Source: Desulfobotulus alkaliphilus (GTDB taxonomy: Bacteria > Desulfobacterota > Desulfobacteria > Desulfobacterales > ASO4-4). Taken from it: a stretch of DNA of 64,000 nucleotides. Each line of letters opens with the position of its first letter. Positions within the stretch are counted from its first letter, which is position 1. The position numbers and the translations under genes were made by a program. This document shows positions 8,155 to 61,814 of this stretch, one piece after another. The stretch covers positions 1-64,000 of the forward strand of contig NZ_VLLC01000017.1 of assembly GCF_007830435.1 (NCBI RefSeq), in the 5' to 3' direction. The notes under the pieces were generated by a model that was not told the origin of the DNA, made no database searches, and was given only the letters and a program-made list of their open reading frames with translations.

Positions 8155-8362
8155 GTTTTCCTCCTCCTTATCCGCAAAGGCCCCTGTCCTGAAAGGGCAT
8201 CTGCGACCGCCGGTTTCCCGGATAAAACGGTCATCCCAAAAAAGAGAACACCCCGAAAAAGCGTTCATCATGCATACAAACTTCTTTTTTAGGGCTGAGC
8301 ATAGTCTCTCTGCCGGGGAAGAAAACATAAAACAGGGTTTGTGATAATTGTTTTACAATGAG

Positions 8363-8708
8363 GTAAGTATTCAGCACAGTTTTCCAAGCACCATAGCTGC
8401 AAGACAGATGCACAGGCCCCAGGCTATTTGCCCGTGACGCAATCTTATTCGGGAGCTTCTTGCCCTGTGCGGAAGCGGCAAAAACTCCCCGCCACAGGCA
8501 GGATAAGCGTTTTGATTACCATAGCAGGCTTAAGCACGCTGCCTTTGTGGCGGCTCAGACAGTTTGCCGCTTCTTTCGCACAGGCCTGCAAAGCTCTGAT
8601 CCGAAACGATTGCAATGTCACTTGCAAATAGCCACGGAGCCTTGCAACAGTACGAAGCTGCTGTAACTGCAGCATTGGCAGTTCGGAATTACTGTGCTGA
8701 ATAATTAC
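8363..8708 (+). mobile_element. R1 MITE, copy A (full length, 346 bp)
   Basis: The element starts GTAAGTATTCAGCACAGT and ends in its near inverted repeat ACTGTGCTGAATAATTAC. Flanking octamers are ACAATGAG (8355-8362) and ACAAAGAG (8709-8716), a 7/8 match that fits a target-site duplication. The two halves are imperfectly complementary over most of the length, so a transcript would fold into one long hairpin. It carries no credible gene. Its right end is 16 bases beyond the stop codon of the Smr gene, and 8155-8362 beside it holds nothing recognisable. Confidence 0.85.
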
Positions 8709-8724
8709 ACAAAGAGCAGAAATC

Positions 8725-9504
8725 TCAGATTTCGGGAAGCTTGACCAGAACAGCACCGCTTTTCCGCTTGGTTTTAGCTTCCCAACGGAACATCCTGATT
8801 TCTCCGGTCTTTTGCATATGGGTCAGAAACTCTTCCGCATAATCCCGGAGCACCCCATTGCCCCCTTCCGAGTGAAGCCCCTTGCCGGTAATGATACGCA
8901 TCACAGAGACCCCCTCCACACGGGCCGTAAGGATGGCAGAACGCATACGCACATCTGCCTGTGCGCTGTTCAGGCCATGGAGATCCAGGGTCTTTCCCGG
9001 AGATGTCCAGACCACAGGCTTCGGCTTTTCCACAACTTCTCCTATAATCTCAGGCTCTGGCAGATCCGGCTCCTGTACGGGTCCCTCTTTTTCAGGATCT
9101 CCGCCCATCAGTACAAAAAGATCTGCATCCGTATCCAGCACAGGGATTTTTTCCTTGATTTCCGGAGAAGGAGGGGCTGCTTTTTTCCGGAAGCGCATGC
9201 GTCTTTTGGGAGCTTTTGGAAGGGATGCACCGCTGTCCTCTGGGGGAGTATCGGGGCCGGGCGCTTGCTTTTCCGGTAAAGCCTCAGGCAGAGGCGCCTT
9301 TTTTTTTATGGTATTTTTTTCGGATACCTCTTCAGAAGCCTTTGCTGGAGGCAGGACGGGAGACTTTTTTTTCCGGGTACGGGTATCTTTTGTCTTTTTT
9401 GCCCGGACCTTTCTTTTTTTTTCAGCAAGTGAAACAGGATCATCCTGTTTTTTCTCTTCCCTGTGCCAGATTTTTCTCCACAGACCCAACAACCAGTCCT
9501 TCAT
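8725..9504 (-). CDS. Smr-domain protein with long charged N-terminal region
   Basis: The last 90 residues form an Smr domain, with LDLHGLNSAQADVRM, the TGKGLHS loop and the following NGVLRDYAEEFL helix. Smr domains are DNA or RNA endonucleases, or bind nucleic acid. Residues 1-150 are low-complexity, rich in Lys, Pro and Glu, and probably disordered. A first ATG at 9510 directly touches the ribosome site, whereas the ATG at 9504 sits 5 bases behind AAGGA and is preferred, giving 259 residues. The natural role is unknown; RNA quality control or mismatch-related DNA processing are the family possibilities. The R1 copy A ends just beyond its stop codon. Confidence 0.85.
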   Translation of the reverse strand: MKDWLLGLWRKIWHREEKKQDDPVSLAEKKRKVRAKKTKDTRTRKKKSPVLPPAKASEEVSEKNTIKKKAPLPEALPEKQAPGPDTPPEDSGASLPKAPKRRMRFRKKAAPPSPEIKEKIPVLDTDADLFVLMGGDPEKEGPVQEPDLPEPEIIGEVVEKPKPVVWTSPGKTLDLHGLNSAQADVRMRSAILTARVEGVSVMRIITGKGLHSEGGNGVLRDYAEEFLTHMQKTGEIRMFRWEAKTKRKSGAVLVKLPEI

Positions 9505-10258: not shown

Positions 10259-11371
10259 ATGTATCATAAAAACAAGAATGAAAACCCGCCTGCCCTGCGC
10301 AAAATCATCCATGTGGATATGGACGCCTTTTATGCTGCCATTGAACAGCGGGACAATCCGGTGCTGAAAGGTCGTCCCGTCATCGTGGGCGGCAACCCCA
10401 AAGGCCGTGGGGTTGTGGCCACATGCAGCTATGAGGCCAGAAAATTCGGCATTCATTCGGCCATGTCTGCGGCGCAGGCCATAAGAAAATGCCCCCATGC
10501 CGTTTTTATCCGCCCGAGAAAAGAGGTGTACGCCGCCGTTTCCAGACAGATTTTTGCCATATGCCAGAAATTTTCCAACTGCATTGAACCCCTTTCCCTG
10601 GACGAGGCCTTCCTTGATGTCAGTGAGGATATCCTGAACCTTGGCTCTGCCACCCGGACAGCAGAAAAACTTCTGGAAACAATCCATAAACATACGGGGC
10701 TGACCGCTTCCGCAGGTGTTTCCTTTAACAAATTTCTGGCCAAGGTGGCCTCGGACATCCGTAAACCCGCAGGCCTCACCGTCATCCGGCCCGAAGACGC
10801 CCCGGCCTTTCTGGAAAAGCTTCCGGTACGAAAATTCTTTGGCGTGGGTAAAACAACGGAAAAAAAGATGCACAGCCACAATCTTTTTACGGGTGAAGAT
10901 ATCAAAGCCATGGGCGAAGAAAAACTGAAAAACCTTTTCGGTAAGGCAGGAAAGGAATTTTATGCCTTTGCCATGGGCCGGGATGACCGGCCTGTCATGG
11001 CGCAGAGAAGCAGAAAGTCCATAGGAAGGGAAGTCACCCTGGAGAGGGATATCCGGGACACAGGGGCCATGCTTGCCATTCTAAAAACTCTGGCGGAAGA
11101 TGTGGAGGCCAGTCTTGTCCGGAAAAAACACGCCGGTCACACCCTCACGCTGAAGGTAAAGTATCCGGATTTCCGCAGCGCCACCCGTTCCATGAGCTTT
11201 CCCTGCCCCCTGTGGCGTGCGGAAGACATGATGGAAAAAATGCCGGAACTTCTGGCCCGTACCGAAGCCGGAGAAAAAGCCGTCCGTCTCCTTGGCCTTG
11301 CCATATCCCAGTTCCCGGATACGGAACAGACAAAGGGACAGATGCTTCTTCCCTTTGTATTCCATAAGTAA
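10259..11371 (+). CDS. dinB: DNA polymerase IV (DinB), C-terminus altered by R1 insertion
   Basis: This Y-family translesion polymerase copies damaged templates. Catalytic motifs are VDMDAFYAAIEQRDNP, with the first metal-binding Asp, and SLDEAFLDV with the Asp-Glu pair. Thumb and little-finger regions follow to about residue 345. The end GQMLLPF fits the beta-clamp binding consensus QxxLxF. No clear ribosome site precedes the ATG, but no internal Met fits the family better. The stop TAA is supplied by the first four bases (GTAA) of R1 copy B. If the insertion and one 8-bp duplicate are removed, the frame would continue for nine more residues to a stop at 11583. Confidence 0.92.
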   Translation: MYHKNKNENPPALRKIIHVDMDAFYAAIEQRDNPVLKGRPVIVGGNPKGRGVVATCSYEARKFGIHSAMSAAQAIRKCPHAVFIRPRKEVYAAVSRQIFAICQKFSNCIEPLSLDEAFLDVSEDILNLGSATRTAEKLLETIHKHTGLTASAGVSFNKFLAKVASDIRKPAGLTVIRPEDAPAFLEKLPVRKFFGVGKTTEKKMHSHNLFTGEDIKAMGEEKLKNLFGKAGKEFYAFAMGRDDRPVMAQRSRKSIGREVTLERDIRDTGAMLAILKTLAEDVEASLVRKKHAGHTLTLKVKYPDFRSATRSMSFPCPLWRAEDMMEKMPELLARTEAGEKAVRLLGLAISQFPDTEQTKGQMLLPFVFHK

Positions 11372-11546
11372 CTGTTCAACACTATTTTCCAGGTACCATA
11401 CCTGCAAGGCAGATGCACAGGCCTGCAAAGCTCTGATCCGAAACGATTGCAATGTCACTTGCAAATAGCCACGGAGCCTTGCAACACTACGAAGCTGCTG
11501 CAATTACAGTATTGGCAGTTCGGAATAAACCGTGCTGAATAATTCC
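11368..11546 (+). mobile_element. R1 MITE, copy B (internally deleted, 179 bp)
   Basis: Both R1 ends are present and are flanked by a perfect 8-bp duplication, TTCCATAA at 11360-11367 and 11547-11554. Compared with copy A the middle 168 bases are missing; the junction lies at a GCACAGGCC that occurs twice in copy A (8410 and 8578), so deletion by recombination between short direct repeats is likely. Confidence 0.9.
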
Positions 11547-18973: not shown

Positions 18974-19298
18974 GTAATTATTCAGAACATTTTATCTTGA
19001 AAAATTGTTCATTAACTTCAGAATTTTGGTTCCAGACAAAGGCAATCGGGCTGTTTGTGAGTGACATTGCAATCGTTTCGGATCAGAGCGTCGCAGACCT
19101 GTGCGAAAGAAGCGGCAAACTGTCTGAGCCGCCACAAAGGCAGCGTACCAAGGTCTGCCATGGTAATCAAAAAGCTTATCCTGCCTGTGGCGGGGAGTTT
19201 TTGCCGCTTCCGCACAGGGCAAGAAGCTCCCGAATAAGATTGCGTCACGAACAAATGGCTCGGTTGTCTATACACCTGATTGAAAGTATTCAATTTGT
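18974..19298 (-). mobile_element. R1 MITE, copy C (diverged outer arms)
   Basis: The core 19062-19250 is nearly identical to the other copies, read in the opposite direction to copy A. The left end starts GTAATTATTCAG, but the outer arms differ from copy A, while left and right arms still resemble each other (GACAA...GTGAC), which suggests a distinct sub-family. The right boundary is approximate and no target duplication was found. It sits between the outer-membrane channel and adaptor genes of one operon. Confidence 0.7.
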
Positions 19299-19312
19299 CA
19301 AAGACAGACTTA

Positions 19313-40237: not shown

Positions 40238-40392
40238 TTATCCTCTCCATTCAATACCTGCAAACCATCCAAAATAAAAACGTAACTGTTCAGCACAGTT
40301 TATTTTGAACTGTCAATGCTGTAATTACAGCAGCTTCGTACTGTTGCAAGGCTCCGTGGCTATTTGCAAGTGACATTGCAATCGTTTCGGAT

Positions 40393-40463
40393 TCCGGCAC
40401 TCAAGCTCTAAAACCAAAGCTCATCATGTAAACGACGCAGCCTTTTCAGGCTTGAGTGCCGGA
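40393..40463. repeat. 71-bp hairpin module, D1
   Basis: Perfect 13-base inverted ends TCCGGCACTCAAG and CTTGAGTGCCGGA enclose a 45-base loop that contains GCAGCCTTTTCAGG, shared with module E1 at 43187. It lies in the left arm of R1 copy D. Confidence 0.85.
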
Positions 40464-40599
40464 GTGCTAATAAGAAGCGGCAAACTGCCTGACCCGCCAC
40501 AAAGGCAACGTACCAAGGCCTGATATTGTAATCAAAAAGCTTATCCTGCCTGTGGCGGGGAGGTTTTGCCGCTTCCCCACAGGGCAAGAAACTCCCGAA

Positions 40600-40670
40600 T
40601 CCGGCACTCAAGATCCATAGGCATTTCTGCTCCCGTAAAGGGGCTTGCGTTTTTTAGCTTGAGTGCCGGA
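40600..40670. repeat. 71-bp hairpin module, D2
   Basis: Same 13-base ends and exactly the same length as D1, but the loop is of a second type (ATCC...GCTCCCGTAAAGGGG), shared with module E2 at 43394. It lies in the right arm of R1 copy D. Confidence 0.85.
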
Positions 40671-40764
40671 TTGCGTCACAGGCAAATAGCCTGGGGCCTG
40701 TGCGTCTGTCTTGCAGCTATGGTACCTGGAAAACTGTGCTGAATAATTATATAAAAACAAGCTC

Positions 40765-42875: not shown

Positions 42876-43186
42876 GCAAAACTCCTCTCTTTCCAGCAGA
42901 AATCCGAAAATCCGTCAACATAAGGATATAAGTAAAATCAAAATTGACAATACGCTTCAAAAAAACTAAGGTCAACGGGTTATCTTATGATTCCGCCGGA
43001 CACTTGACGTTTTCTGTTTTAAAACTTAAAAACAAGACGCTGTTTTTAAAAACAAAAAAACACTGTAATTATTCAGCATAGTTTATTCCGAACTGCCAAT
43101 GCTAAAATTGCAGCAGATTCGTACTTTATGCAAGGCTCCGTGGCTATTTGCAAGTGACATTGCAATCGTTTCGGATCAGAGTTTTG

Positions 43187-43257
43187 TCCGGCACTCAAGC
43201 CAAAAATCCAAAGACTATAATGCAAACGATGCAGCCTTTTCAGGCTTGAGTGCCGGA
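43187..43257. repeat. 71-bp hairpin module, E1
   Basis: Same perfect 13-base inverted ends as D1 and D2; the loop shares GCAGCCTTTTCAGG with D1. Exactly 71 bases. Confidence 0.85.
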
Positions 43258-43393
43258 GTGCTCATAAGAAGCGGCAAACTGTCTGAGCCGCCACAAAGGC
43301 AGTGTGCTTAAGCCTGCCATGGTAATAAAAAAGCTTATCCTGCCTGTGGCGGGGAGTTTTTGCCGCTTCCGCACAGGGCAAGAAGCTCCCGAA

Positions 43394-43464
43394 TCCGGCA
43401 CTCAAGATCCTTGAAGCACTTTTGCTCCTGTAAAGGGCTTGAGCTTTTCAGCTTGAGTGCCGGA
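43394..43464. repeat. 71-bp hairpin module, E2
   Basis: Same ends and length; the loop (ATCCTTGAAGC...GCTCCTGTAAAGGG) is related to D2. Confidence 0.85.
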
Positions 43465-43540
43465 TTGCGTCACGGGCAAATAGCCGGGGCCTGTGCATCT
43501 GTCTGGCAGCTATGGTACTTGGAAAGCTATGCTGAACAGC

Positions 43541-43651
43541 AACCCACGCCGTGTTACGGCGTTTTGTCATAAAGTAACTTGTGAAGTTACCCAGAAGCAG
43601 CTCACGCCCTGCCAGGGCGTCTTGTCATAGAGTAACTTGTGCAGGATTCAA
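43541..43651. repeat. Two tandem 58-bp units, each with a small hairpin
   Basis: The units share TTGTCATA(A/G)AGTAACTTGTG. Each has a stem of the form ACGCC...GGCGT: ACGCCG-TGTTA-CGGCGT in the first and ACGCCCT-GCC-AGGGCGT in the second, where a pair has swapped orientation. A third partial AGTTAC-CAGAAG occurs near 43720. The gap 42876-43811 contains this, R1 copy E and otherwise A/T-rich sequence. Confidence 0.55.
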
Positions 43652-43811
43652 ACTAATTTCGATCAGTGATGGATAATTGGTAATTTTTTAAGCTTTTGAA
43701 TTAAAAGAACTAAATTCAAGTTACTCAGAAGTTACAAAACATTTTATCATGGATACAATGGATACATCGGCCATGGCTGGAAAATGACCTTCTCAAAATA
43801 CCCGAGGCAAG

Positions 43812-57474: not shown

Positions 57475-57632
57475 AAACCACAAGTATCGTCCATCGGTAT
57501 GGTAATTACAAAGCGCATTCTGTATGTGGCGGGGTTTTTGCTGCTTAAGTGGCGGATTGCGTTAAAGGCAAATCCTTGGTTTGGCGGCTGCAGGCCCGAG
57601 CTTTTAGTTTATTACCTGAGCAGCAGATTTTA
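57475..57632 (-). repeat. Degenerate R1-like sequence (copy G)
   Basis: TGTGGCGGGG, GTGGCGGATTGCGTTAAAGG and GGCAAAT resemble the right half of the long R1 form, including the end of a 71-bp module. No terminal repeats or duplication are recognisable, so this is likely an old copy. It occupies most of the 306-base gap between the small lipoprotein and the diguanylate cyclase. Confidence 0.4.
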
Positions 57633-61504: not shown

Positions 61505-61814
61505 GTAACTGTTCAGCACAGTTTTCCAAGTACCATAGCTGCAAGACAGACGCACAGGCCCCAGGCTATTTGCCCATGACGCAATCTTATTCGGGAGCTT
61601 CTTGGCCTGTGCGGAAGCGGCAAAAACTCCCCGCCACAGGCAGAATAAGCTTTTTGATTACCAAAGCAGACCTTGGTACGCTGCCTTTGTGGCGGCTCAG
61701 ACAGTTTGCCGCTTCTTTCGCACAGGCCTGCGAAACTCTGATCCGAAACGATTGCAATGTCACTTGCAAATAGCCACGGAGCCTTGCAACAGTACGAAGC
61801 TGCTGAATAATTAC
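61505..61814 (+). mobile_element. R1 MITE, copy F (310 bp)
   Basis: GTAACTGTTCAGCACAGT starts the element and GCTGAATAATTAC ends it; the flanking octamers are ATTTTTTT at 61497-61504 and 61815-61822, a perfect match. Compared with copy A, 36 bases near the right end are missing. The right duplicate overlaps the first two bases of the dnaK stop codon (TTA), without changing the protein. Confidence 0.9.

What the first reader, a model, noticed from the sequence alone, without database searches (positions are those of the whole stretch)
8363..8708. R1 is an imperfect palindrome over its whole length
In copy A the left half (GGCTATTTGC, GTGAC, GCAAT, CCTGTGCG, AAGCGGCAAA, CCGCCACA, GGCAG) reappears as its complement in the right half in the same order. 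If read through by RNA polymerase, it would fold into a hairpin of roughly 150 bp per arm. This would be an unusual, genome-wide structured RNA or an RNase III substrate.
Basis: seen in the sequence. Interest (0 to 1): 0.7.

Follow-up and report, generated by a model that had tools for sequence, protein, structure and literature searches.

The report
Phylum-wide hairpin carried by miniature transposons
The repeat is a small mobile DNA element that sits just after genes in hundreds of copies, and its folded, hairpin-shaped middle has relatives in many other bacteria of the same phylum whose pairing was kept while the letters changed, so the fold itself appears to matter although what it does is unknown.

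Summary
In detail: window 8363-8708 is an imperfect palindrome end to end (RNA fold -169.7 kcal/mol, z -10). It is one copy of a non-autonomous transposon: ends GTAAYTRTTCAGCAC, 8-bp target duplications, empty sites in a sister species, roughly 290 copies or fragments (extrapolated), none overlapping a called gene, mostly just after stop codons. The ends match IS66-family elements of the same order; no such element with these ends was found in the genus.

But the inner hairpin (8423-8633) has distant relatives: covariance models found it in 45 of 389 genomes of the class and 38 of 395 of the phylum. In an unfitted alignment of 25 hairpins, 34 of 42 pairs change on both sides and stay paired (0 of 500 shuffles). 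Other families carry the hairpin in different transposon ends. Helices show no excess of G-U over A-C, unlike tRNA stems, so RNA function is not shown; folded DNA, minus-strand RNA or arm-to-arm copying remain open. Rfam has no match. Best reading: a mobile element carrying an undescribed, conserved fold.

The parts
8363..8708 (+). copy A: complete element, 346 bp, imperfect palindrome
   Evidence: ends GTAA..TTAC, flanks ACAATGAG/ACAAAGAG (one mismatch); site empty in G002
8363..8384 (+). left terminal inverted repeat (GTAAGTATTCAGCACAGTTTTC in this copy)
   Evidence: alignment of 40 copies; same outer 13-bp pattern as IS66 elements L120, L122, L123
8687..8708 (-). right terminal inverted repeat (ends GCTGAATAATTAC)
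8423..8633 (+). core hairpin, the part with distant relatives
   Evidence: core arms 0.1-4% diverged among copies against 4-14% in the outer arms; model R2, built without sequences of this genus, matches 8419-8634 with E 6e-14
8355..8362 (.). left copy of the 8-bp target duplication
8709..8716 (.). right copy of the 8-bp target duplication (one mismatch)
11368..11546 (+). copy B: ends only, core deleted; TSD TTCCATAA exact; its GTAA supplies the TAA of the ORF 10259-11371
   Evidence: site empty in G002
18974..19303 (-). copy C: subfamily R1b (same core, other outer arms), shared with G002 at the same place
40282..40750 (-). copy D: 469 bp, core interrupted by two extra hairpin modules; TSD ATAAAAAC exact; empty in G002
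43065..43543 (-). copy E: like D, with an extended left end (see noticed)
   Evidence: block absent in G002
61505..61814 (+). copy F: 310 bp, TSD ATTTTTTT exact
57498..57546 (-). fragment G

Best explanation
R1 is a miniature inverted-repeat transposable element. Its ends are of the IS66 kind (GTAA..., 8-bp target duplication), so an IS66-type transposase acting in trans most likely moved it; that transposase is not seen in the genus today. SHOWN: ends, duplications, empty sites, copy number, position after stop codons. Its inner 211 bp belong to a family of hairpins found across the phylum whose helices are preserved by compensatory changes while certain unpaired, asymmetric letters (AACTC and CTCAAACAG beside the end stem, TAACGC, AATGTCGCT) stay the same; elsewhere the same hairpin sits in quite different transposon ends. 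SHOWN: covariation, shared motifs, two kinds of ends. INFERRED: the hairpin is kept because its folded single strand (DNA exposed at replication or during transposition, or else a minus-strand transcript) is recognised by some factor that helps the element spread or makes it tolerable to the host.
For: TSD of 8 bp exact in 20 of 40 copies and within one mismatch in 25 of 40, control 10 of 1560; four more copies give exact TSDs once their extended left end is used (L004, L005, L011, L012, read by eye). Strict end motif 210 times in the genome, 0 in the reversed control. IS66-family elements of the same order have ends GTAACTATTCAGC (L120, L122, L123) or GTAACTACTCAGG (L119) and exact 8-bp TSDs. 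In G002, sites A, B and D lack the element and the block with E is absent; C is shared. 67 of 67 elements lie outside called genes, median 37 bp from a stop codon against 154 in the control. Core relatives: G079 by BLAST, then model R1 in 45 of 389 genomes of the class and R2 in 38 of 395 of the phylum, 25 of 246 genera. Covariation on A4: 91.9% of 1049 cells paired, 34 of 42 pairs with two-sided changes, score 0.494 against 0.165 (sd 0.012) in shuffles, 0 of 500; slid versions at most 53.8% paired. Other end type TTGATG..TCGTAAAAAGTC with 4-bp duplications exact in 10 of 20, control 0.3.
Against: No sign of pair-keeping among recent copies. Four-gamete conflicts in 745 of 1378 site pairs point to exchange between copies, which alone could make the core uniform. 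No mobilising gene with matching ends was found in the three genomes of the genus, which are draft assemblies. Helix wobble counts are near even. The functional step is not tested at all.
Confidence: 0.6

Rival explanations
1. An ordinary MITE whose palindrome arose by inverted duplication; its arms stay complementary because replication template switching or arm-to-arm repair copies one arm from the other (a known process at quasi-palindromes, recalled). The fold has no function.
For: Helices show as few G-U as A-C oppositions (18-20 against 24-33 cells), while 10 tRNAs gave 7 G-T and 0 A-C; recent copies decay neutrally; much exchange among copies.
Against: Unpaired asymmetric motifs are nearly invariant across families, which arm copying would erase; core arms hold fewer single-copy changes than the outer arms, and the loop between them holds many.
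Confidence: 0.25
2. A structured RNA read from the minus strand (reverse complement of the reader's orientation), acting in mRNA 3' ends, for example as an RNase III or stability element, as described for Correia/NEMIS and ERIC.
For: Strong covariation; minus strand folds better in 66 of 66 full copies (mean 15.7 kcal/mol) and 31 of 36 cores; arm alignment of 53 hairpins gives 131 oppositions that are wobble on the minus strand and 47 on the plus strand; location after stop codons.
Against: No orientation bias to co-directional genes, 22 to 17; wobble excess is absent inside the helices, so the bias may come largely from conserved loop positions shared by descent; several phylum members have C(TTCG)G end loops on the plus strand; no Rfam match; no promoter-like site in the region scanned.
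Confidence: 0.3
3. A folded single-stranded DNA recombination or transposition substrate, in the manner of integron attC sites or REP sequences with tyrosine transposases.
For: Conserved asymmetry and variable helix letters resemble the attC principle (recalled; PMC3053210 seen in a search listing only); even wobble counts suit DNA; the same core in two kinds of ends.
Against: Target duplications and terminal inverted repeats point to DDE transposases, which do not need such a substrate (recalled); no integrase or tyrosine transposase was sought.
Confidence: 0.12
4. A transcription terminator or insulator placed after genes.
For: Median 37 bp after stop codons, 39 of 69 within 50 bp against 21% in the control.
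Against: No terminal T run at the element ends; terminator-like sites in the region 2 against 1.1 in shuffles. Avoidance of genes and 5' regions would give the same placement.
Confidence: 0.08

Closest known systems
MITEs, e.g. ERIC and Correia/NEMIS (PMC2229807 and PMC10969869, passages read)
   Same: Short, non-coding, terminal inverted repeats, target duplication, long stem-loop, intergenic, often near gene ends
   Different: 346 bp rather than about 100-200 bp, 8-bp duplications, IS66-like ends, and a core with covarying relatives across a phylum; the passages I read describe no such core
IS66 family insertion sequences
   Same: Outer GTAACTATTCAGC and 8-bp target duplication
   Different: No transposase gene; core not similar to the IS66 loci held
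Small repeats with the same ends in distant bacteria (L072 Thalassocella blandensis, L082 Deltaproteobacteria MAG)
   Same: GTAACTATTCAGCACAGTTT, palindromic interior, exact 8-bp duplication (L072 second copy, L082)
   Different: Interiors not similar to the R1 core
Integron attC sites and REP sequences
   Same: Imperfect palindromes whose structure is kept while letters vary (recalled; PMC3733652 on REPs, passages read)
   Different: R1 has transposon ends and target duplications; no integrase or RAYT gene was sought

Membership tests
MITE | terminal inverted repeats | tested here: met
MITE | target site duplication | tested here: met
   8 bp exact in 20 of 40, within one mismatch 25 of 40, control 10 of 1560
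MITE | no transposase gene, short, many copies | tested here: met
   145-479 bp in 20 end-paired elements; 31 clusters in 424 kb
MITE | mobilised in trans by a related transposase | tested here: inconclusive
   IS66 elements with these ends exist in the order but none was found in the genus; the one IS66 of G000 has ends GTAACTTCTCAATAAGTG
IS66-derived MITE | GTAA ends and 8-bp duplication shared with IS66 elements | tested here: met
Correia/NEMIS or ERIC | TA target duplication (recalled; PMC2229807 table lists TA at the termini) | tested here: not met
   8-bp duplications of varied sequence
Structured RNA family of Rfam 15 | match to a curated covariance model | tested here: not met
Structured RNA | compensatory changes between lineages | tested here: met
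Structured RNA | wobble pairs tolerated on one strand | tested here: inconclusive
   even inside helices, biased to the minus strand over whole arms
Structured RNA | expressed | not testable with these tools
   no transcript data
attC or REP-like ssDNA substrate | recognised by an integrase or HUH transposase | not tested

The most novel reading that the evidence does not exclude
The 160-220 nt hairpin is an undescribed, phylum-wide functional nucleic-acid module, recognised in folded single-stranded form, that has been captured by at least two unrelated kinds of transposon ends and spread to hundreds of copies per genome.
Probability: 0.4. Interest if true: 0.85.

Novelty: new variant of a known kind. 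Interest (0 to 1): 0.62.

Why it matters
Palindromic MITEs are usually treated as decayed transposons whose fold is a by-product of their ends. Here the inner fold is wider spread than any one set of ends, and its pairing was kept through sequence change. That makes the question whether the fold of small bacterial transposons is selected directly testable, and offers a covariance model for an abundant class of intergenic sequence that Rfam does not cover.

Tried and rejected
Coding function of the core: the ORF 8445-8756(-) crosses the element, but one-base indels occur inside the core region among copies; rejected as conserved coding. Rfam families: none. Viral contigs with the end motif: 17 stretches; those examined showed no close partner end and mostly lay in open frames; dropped as chance. 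Phages and plasmids: no match to one order-level hairpin, L229; exact loop word in viral contigs, 0. Terminator or promoter signals: not clearly above shuffles. MAFFT alignment of all 54 hairpins gave only 4 pairs, so it was misaligned in the helices and not used for covariation. Gene context in other genera with a crude ORF rule (12 of 33 overlaps) was judged unreliable and not used. Hammerhead and k-turn motifs were considered from memory and not pursued. Papers: searches in the held CC-licensed library found no description of this element; that library omits most subscription journals, and the Chunjie MITE paper of Geobacter is not held, so it could not be compared.

Rows left out: of the 27 matches in A3, four (L223, L225, L227, L237) were not put into A4, without a formal test; two G079 copies were added. 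TSD counts used the 40 full-length copies. One search stopped on an error after printing the divergence profile; one search repeated the rest.

Full report
WHAT WAS CLAIMED AND WHETHER IT IS THERE. It is. The stretch 8343-8728 folds into one long hairpin, -169.7 kcal/mol, z -10.0, 0 of 100 shuffles as good; with DNA parameters z -12.95 for 8363-8708. The 66 full-length copies used below fold at -120 to -165 kcal/mol, with 64-76% of bases paired.

WHAT IT IS. The coordinates are the exact ends of a transposable element. In most of 40 copies of the same genome the left end is GTAACTGTTCAGCACAG or GTAATTATTCAGCACAG and the right end its complement. Outside the ends, 8-bp flanks match exactly in 20 of 40 copies and with at most one mismatch in 25 of 40; left flanks against right flanks of other copies do so in 10 of 1560 comparisons. 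Four copies that fail (L004, L005, L011, L012) have a longer left end that begins GTAACTTC; taken from there their 8-bp flanks match exactly (read by eye). In the sister species G002 (coding DNA about 86% identical) the places of A, B and D have no element and the block holding E is absent, whereas C is present in both at the same place; F lies outside the compared stretch. An unbiased sample (window plus 18 stretches of 20 kb) has 31 clusters covering 9,156 of 424,000 bases, which extrapolates to roughly 290 in the 4.0-Mb assembly; the first look listed 288 candidates, of which 40 were scored. A strict end motif occurs 210 times, 0 in the control.

WHICH TRANSPOSON. GTAA ends and 8-bp duplications are recalled as marks of the IS66 family. 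Tested: among 30 IS66 loci of the same order, L120, L122 and L123 have ends GTAACTATTCAGC (one end GTAACCATTCAGC in L120) and L119 GTAACTACTCAGG, each with an exact 8-bp duplication; the other loci gave other ends or none that I could define. The genus holds one IS66 element, in G000, with ends GTAACTTCTCAATAAGTG. So the ends are IS66-like, but the element that moved R1 was not found; drafts of 70 to 95 contigs may hide it.

WHERE IT SITS. With a home-made gene caller, 0 of 67 elements of at least 140 bp overlap a gene although 82% of the sample is coding. The median distance to a neighbouring stop codon is 37 bp (n 69) against 154 bp for random intergenic points; 39 of 69 are within 50 bp against 21%. 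Distances to starts are near the control (161 against 182). Seven touch the 3' end of a gene; in B the element's own GTAA supplies the stop codon of the ORF 10259-11371. Orientation relative to co-directional genes is 22 to 17.

On 66 copies (44 G000, 18 G002, 4 G001), single-side changes at the 126 pairs kept a pair in 143 cells and broke it in 382. Among transitions the kept and broken kinds are equal or the broken ones commoner: C>T 94, G>A 98, A>G 36, T>C 66. Two-sided changes number 45 (20 kept) against 26.2 and 11.0 in shuffles (0 and 2 of 500 as high), but partners slid by two columns give 39. So recent copies do not show clear selection for pairing.

AN UNEXPECTED PATTERN. Divergence from the consensus of the 66 copies is 4-14% in the outer arms and 11% in the centre (161-180), but 0.3-3.4% in the core arms (61-140, 181-260); single-copy changes in the 44 G000 copies number 1-5 per 20 bp in the core arms, 7-11 in the centre and 4-22 in the outer arms. 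The same core occurs with other outer arms (subfamily R1b, e.g. window C, L054, L055, L058). Exchange between copies is heavy (four-gamete conflicts in 745 of 1378 site pairs; repeated mutation can add to this) and may homogenise the core, but it does not predict a variable centre. In G079 the ends are again the most variable part, though the contrast is weaker.

DISTANT RELATIVES. BLAST with the core found 6 of 389 genomes of the class: the three of the genus, two with one short match, and G079 of another family of the order. G079 has at least 40 copies of a 236-bp element with ends GTAACTATTCAGC, 8-bp duplications (7 of 11 exact, control 0 of 110 within one mismatch) and a core in which helices are replaced on both sides while loop motifs stay. 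A covariance model of both matched 45 of 389 genomes, 24 of 148 genera, all within the order. I aligned 25 hairpins from 23 genomes (23 of the 27 matches and 2 of G079) with MAFFT, without structure (A4). On this alignment 91.9% of 1049 cells pair, 34 of 42 pairs have two-sided changes, covariation score 0.494 against 0.165 (sd 0.012) in shuffles, 0 of 500; partners slid by one column pair in at most 53.8%. The outermost and the terminal helix were not pairs of the model that found the sequences. A second model from A4, which holds no sequence of this genus, finds window copies A, C and F with E 6e-14, 1e-15 and 9e-13 and 38 of 395 genomes of the phylum, 25 of 246 genera, 31 of the 38 outside the order. 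Since A4 members were found with a model that included the genus, this is a reciprocal check, not an independent one.

SHARED FEATURES. In the plus orientation most have helix-AACTC-short stem-CTCAAACAG-helix-TTTTTAACGC, then TTTTTCC and AATGTCGCTC, with variable helices between. The loops of the end stem are TAAC, TTCG, CAAG and others. In other families of the order the hairpin lies in ends TTGATGNNYTCGTAAAAAGTC with short duplications (4 bp exact in 10 of 20, control 0.3; 6 bp within one mismatch in 12 of 20, control 1.6; boundaries were scanned for the best fit). So one core rides in two kinds of ends.

RNA OR DNA. Inside the helices G-U and A-C oppositions are about equal (20 and 24 over 42 pairs; 18 and 24 over 41, or 20 and 33 over 47); 10 tRNAs from the loci gave 7 G-T and 0 A-C in 120 stem pairs. 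Over whole arms, aligned without regard to strand, oppositions that are wobble on the minus strand exceed those on the plus strand 54 to 16 (28 hairpins of the order) and 77 to 31 (25 of the phylum), and the minus strand folds better in 66 of 66 copies and 31 of 36 cores. Loop positions shared by descent inflate these counts. I read this as undecided between folded DNA and minus-strand RNA. Rfam 15 has no match.

VERDICT. What the conserved fold does is inferred, not shown.

Noticed in passing
window 43544-43760 (minus strand), L004, L005, L011, L012, L030, L132, L056, L067: Some copies carry an extra end module GTAACTTCTGAGTAACTTC..ACGCCGTAACACGGCGTGGGTTGCTG (L030 a related one on the right); in L004, L005, L011 and L012 the duplications start outside it, and its tip resembles the end of the resident IS66 of contig C66 (GTAACTTCTCAATAAG). 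Ends seem to be exchangeable.
   Followed up: partly
window 40282-40750 and 43065-43543; L069, L150: Two further hairpin modules (CGGCACTCAAG...CTTGAGTGCCGG) inserted at roughly mirrored places in both arms of the core.
   Followed up: partly
66 copies: The two ends of a copy are mostly unlike: CTG left with TAA right in 31, TTA left with CAG right in 16, alike in 5 (the rest other variants). The interior seems to lie in either orientation between distinct left and right ends.
   Followed up: partly
window 11368-11371: The TAA that ends the ORF 10259-11371 (looks like a Y-family polymerase, by eye) comes from the MITE end GTAA.
   Followed up: partly
L072 1662-1829 and 2008-2175; L082 4715-4870; L083 1060-1289: Unrelated palindromic interiors inside the same IS66-like ends in a Thalassocella and two other MAGs; exact 8-bp duplications in the second copy of L072 and in L082, none in L083.
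   Followed up: partly
L221 1501-1658 and 1736-1893 (G117): Two hairpins of the family lie in opposite orientation 77 bp apart.
   Followed up: no
L071 1330-2934 and 3172-4782: The IS66 transposase ORF of G000 sits beside an ORF with YD-repeat-like sequence (by eye), on a contig of 6.3 kb.
   Followed up: no
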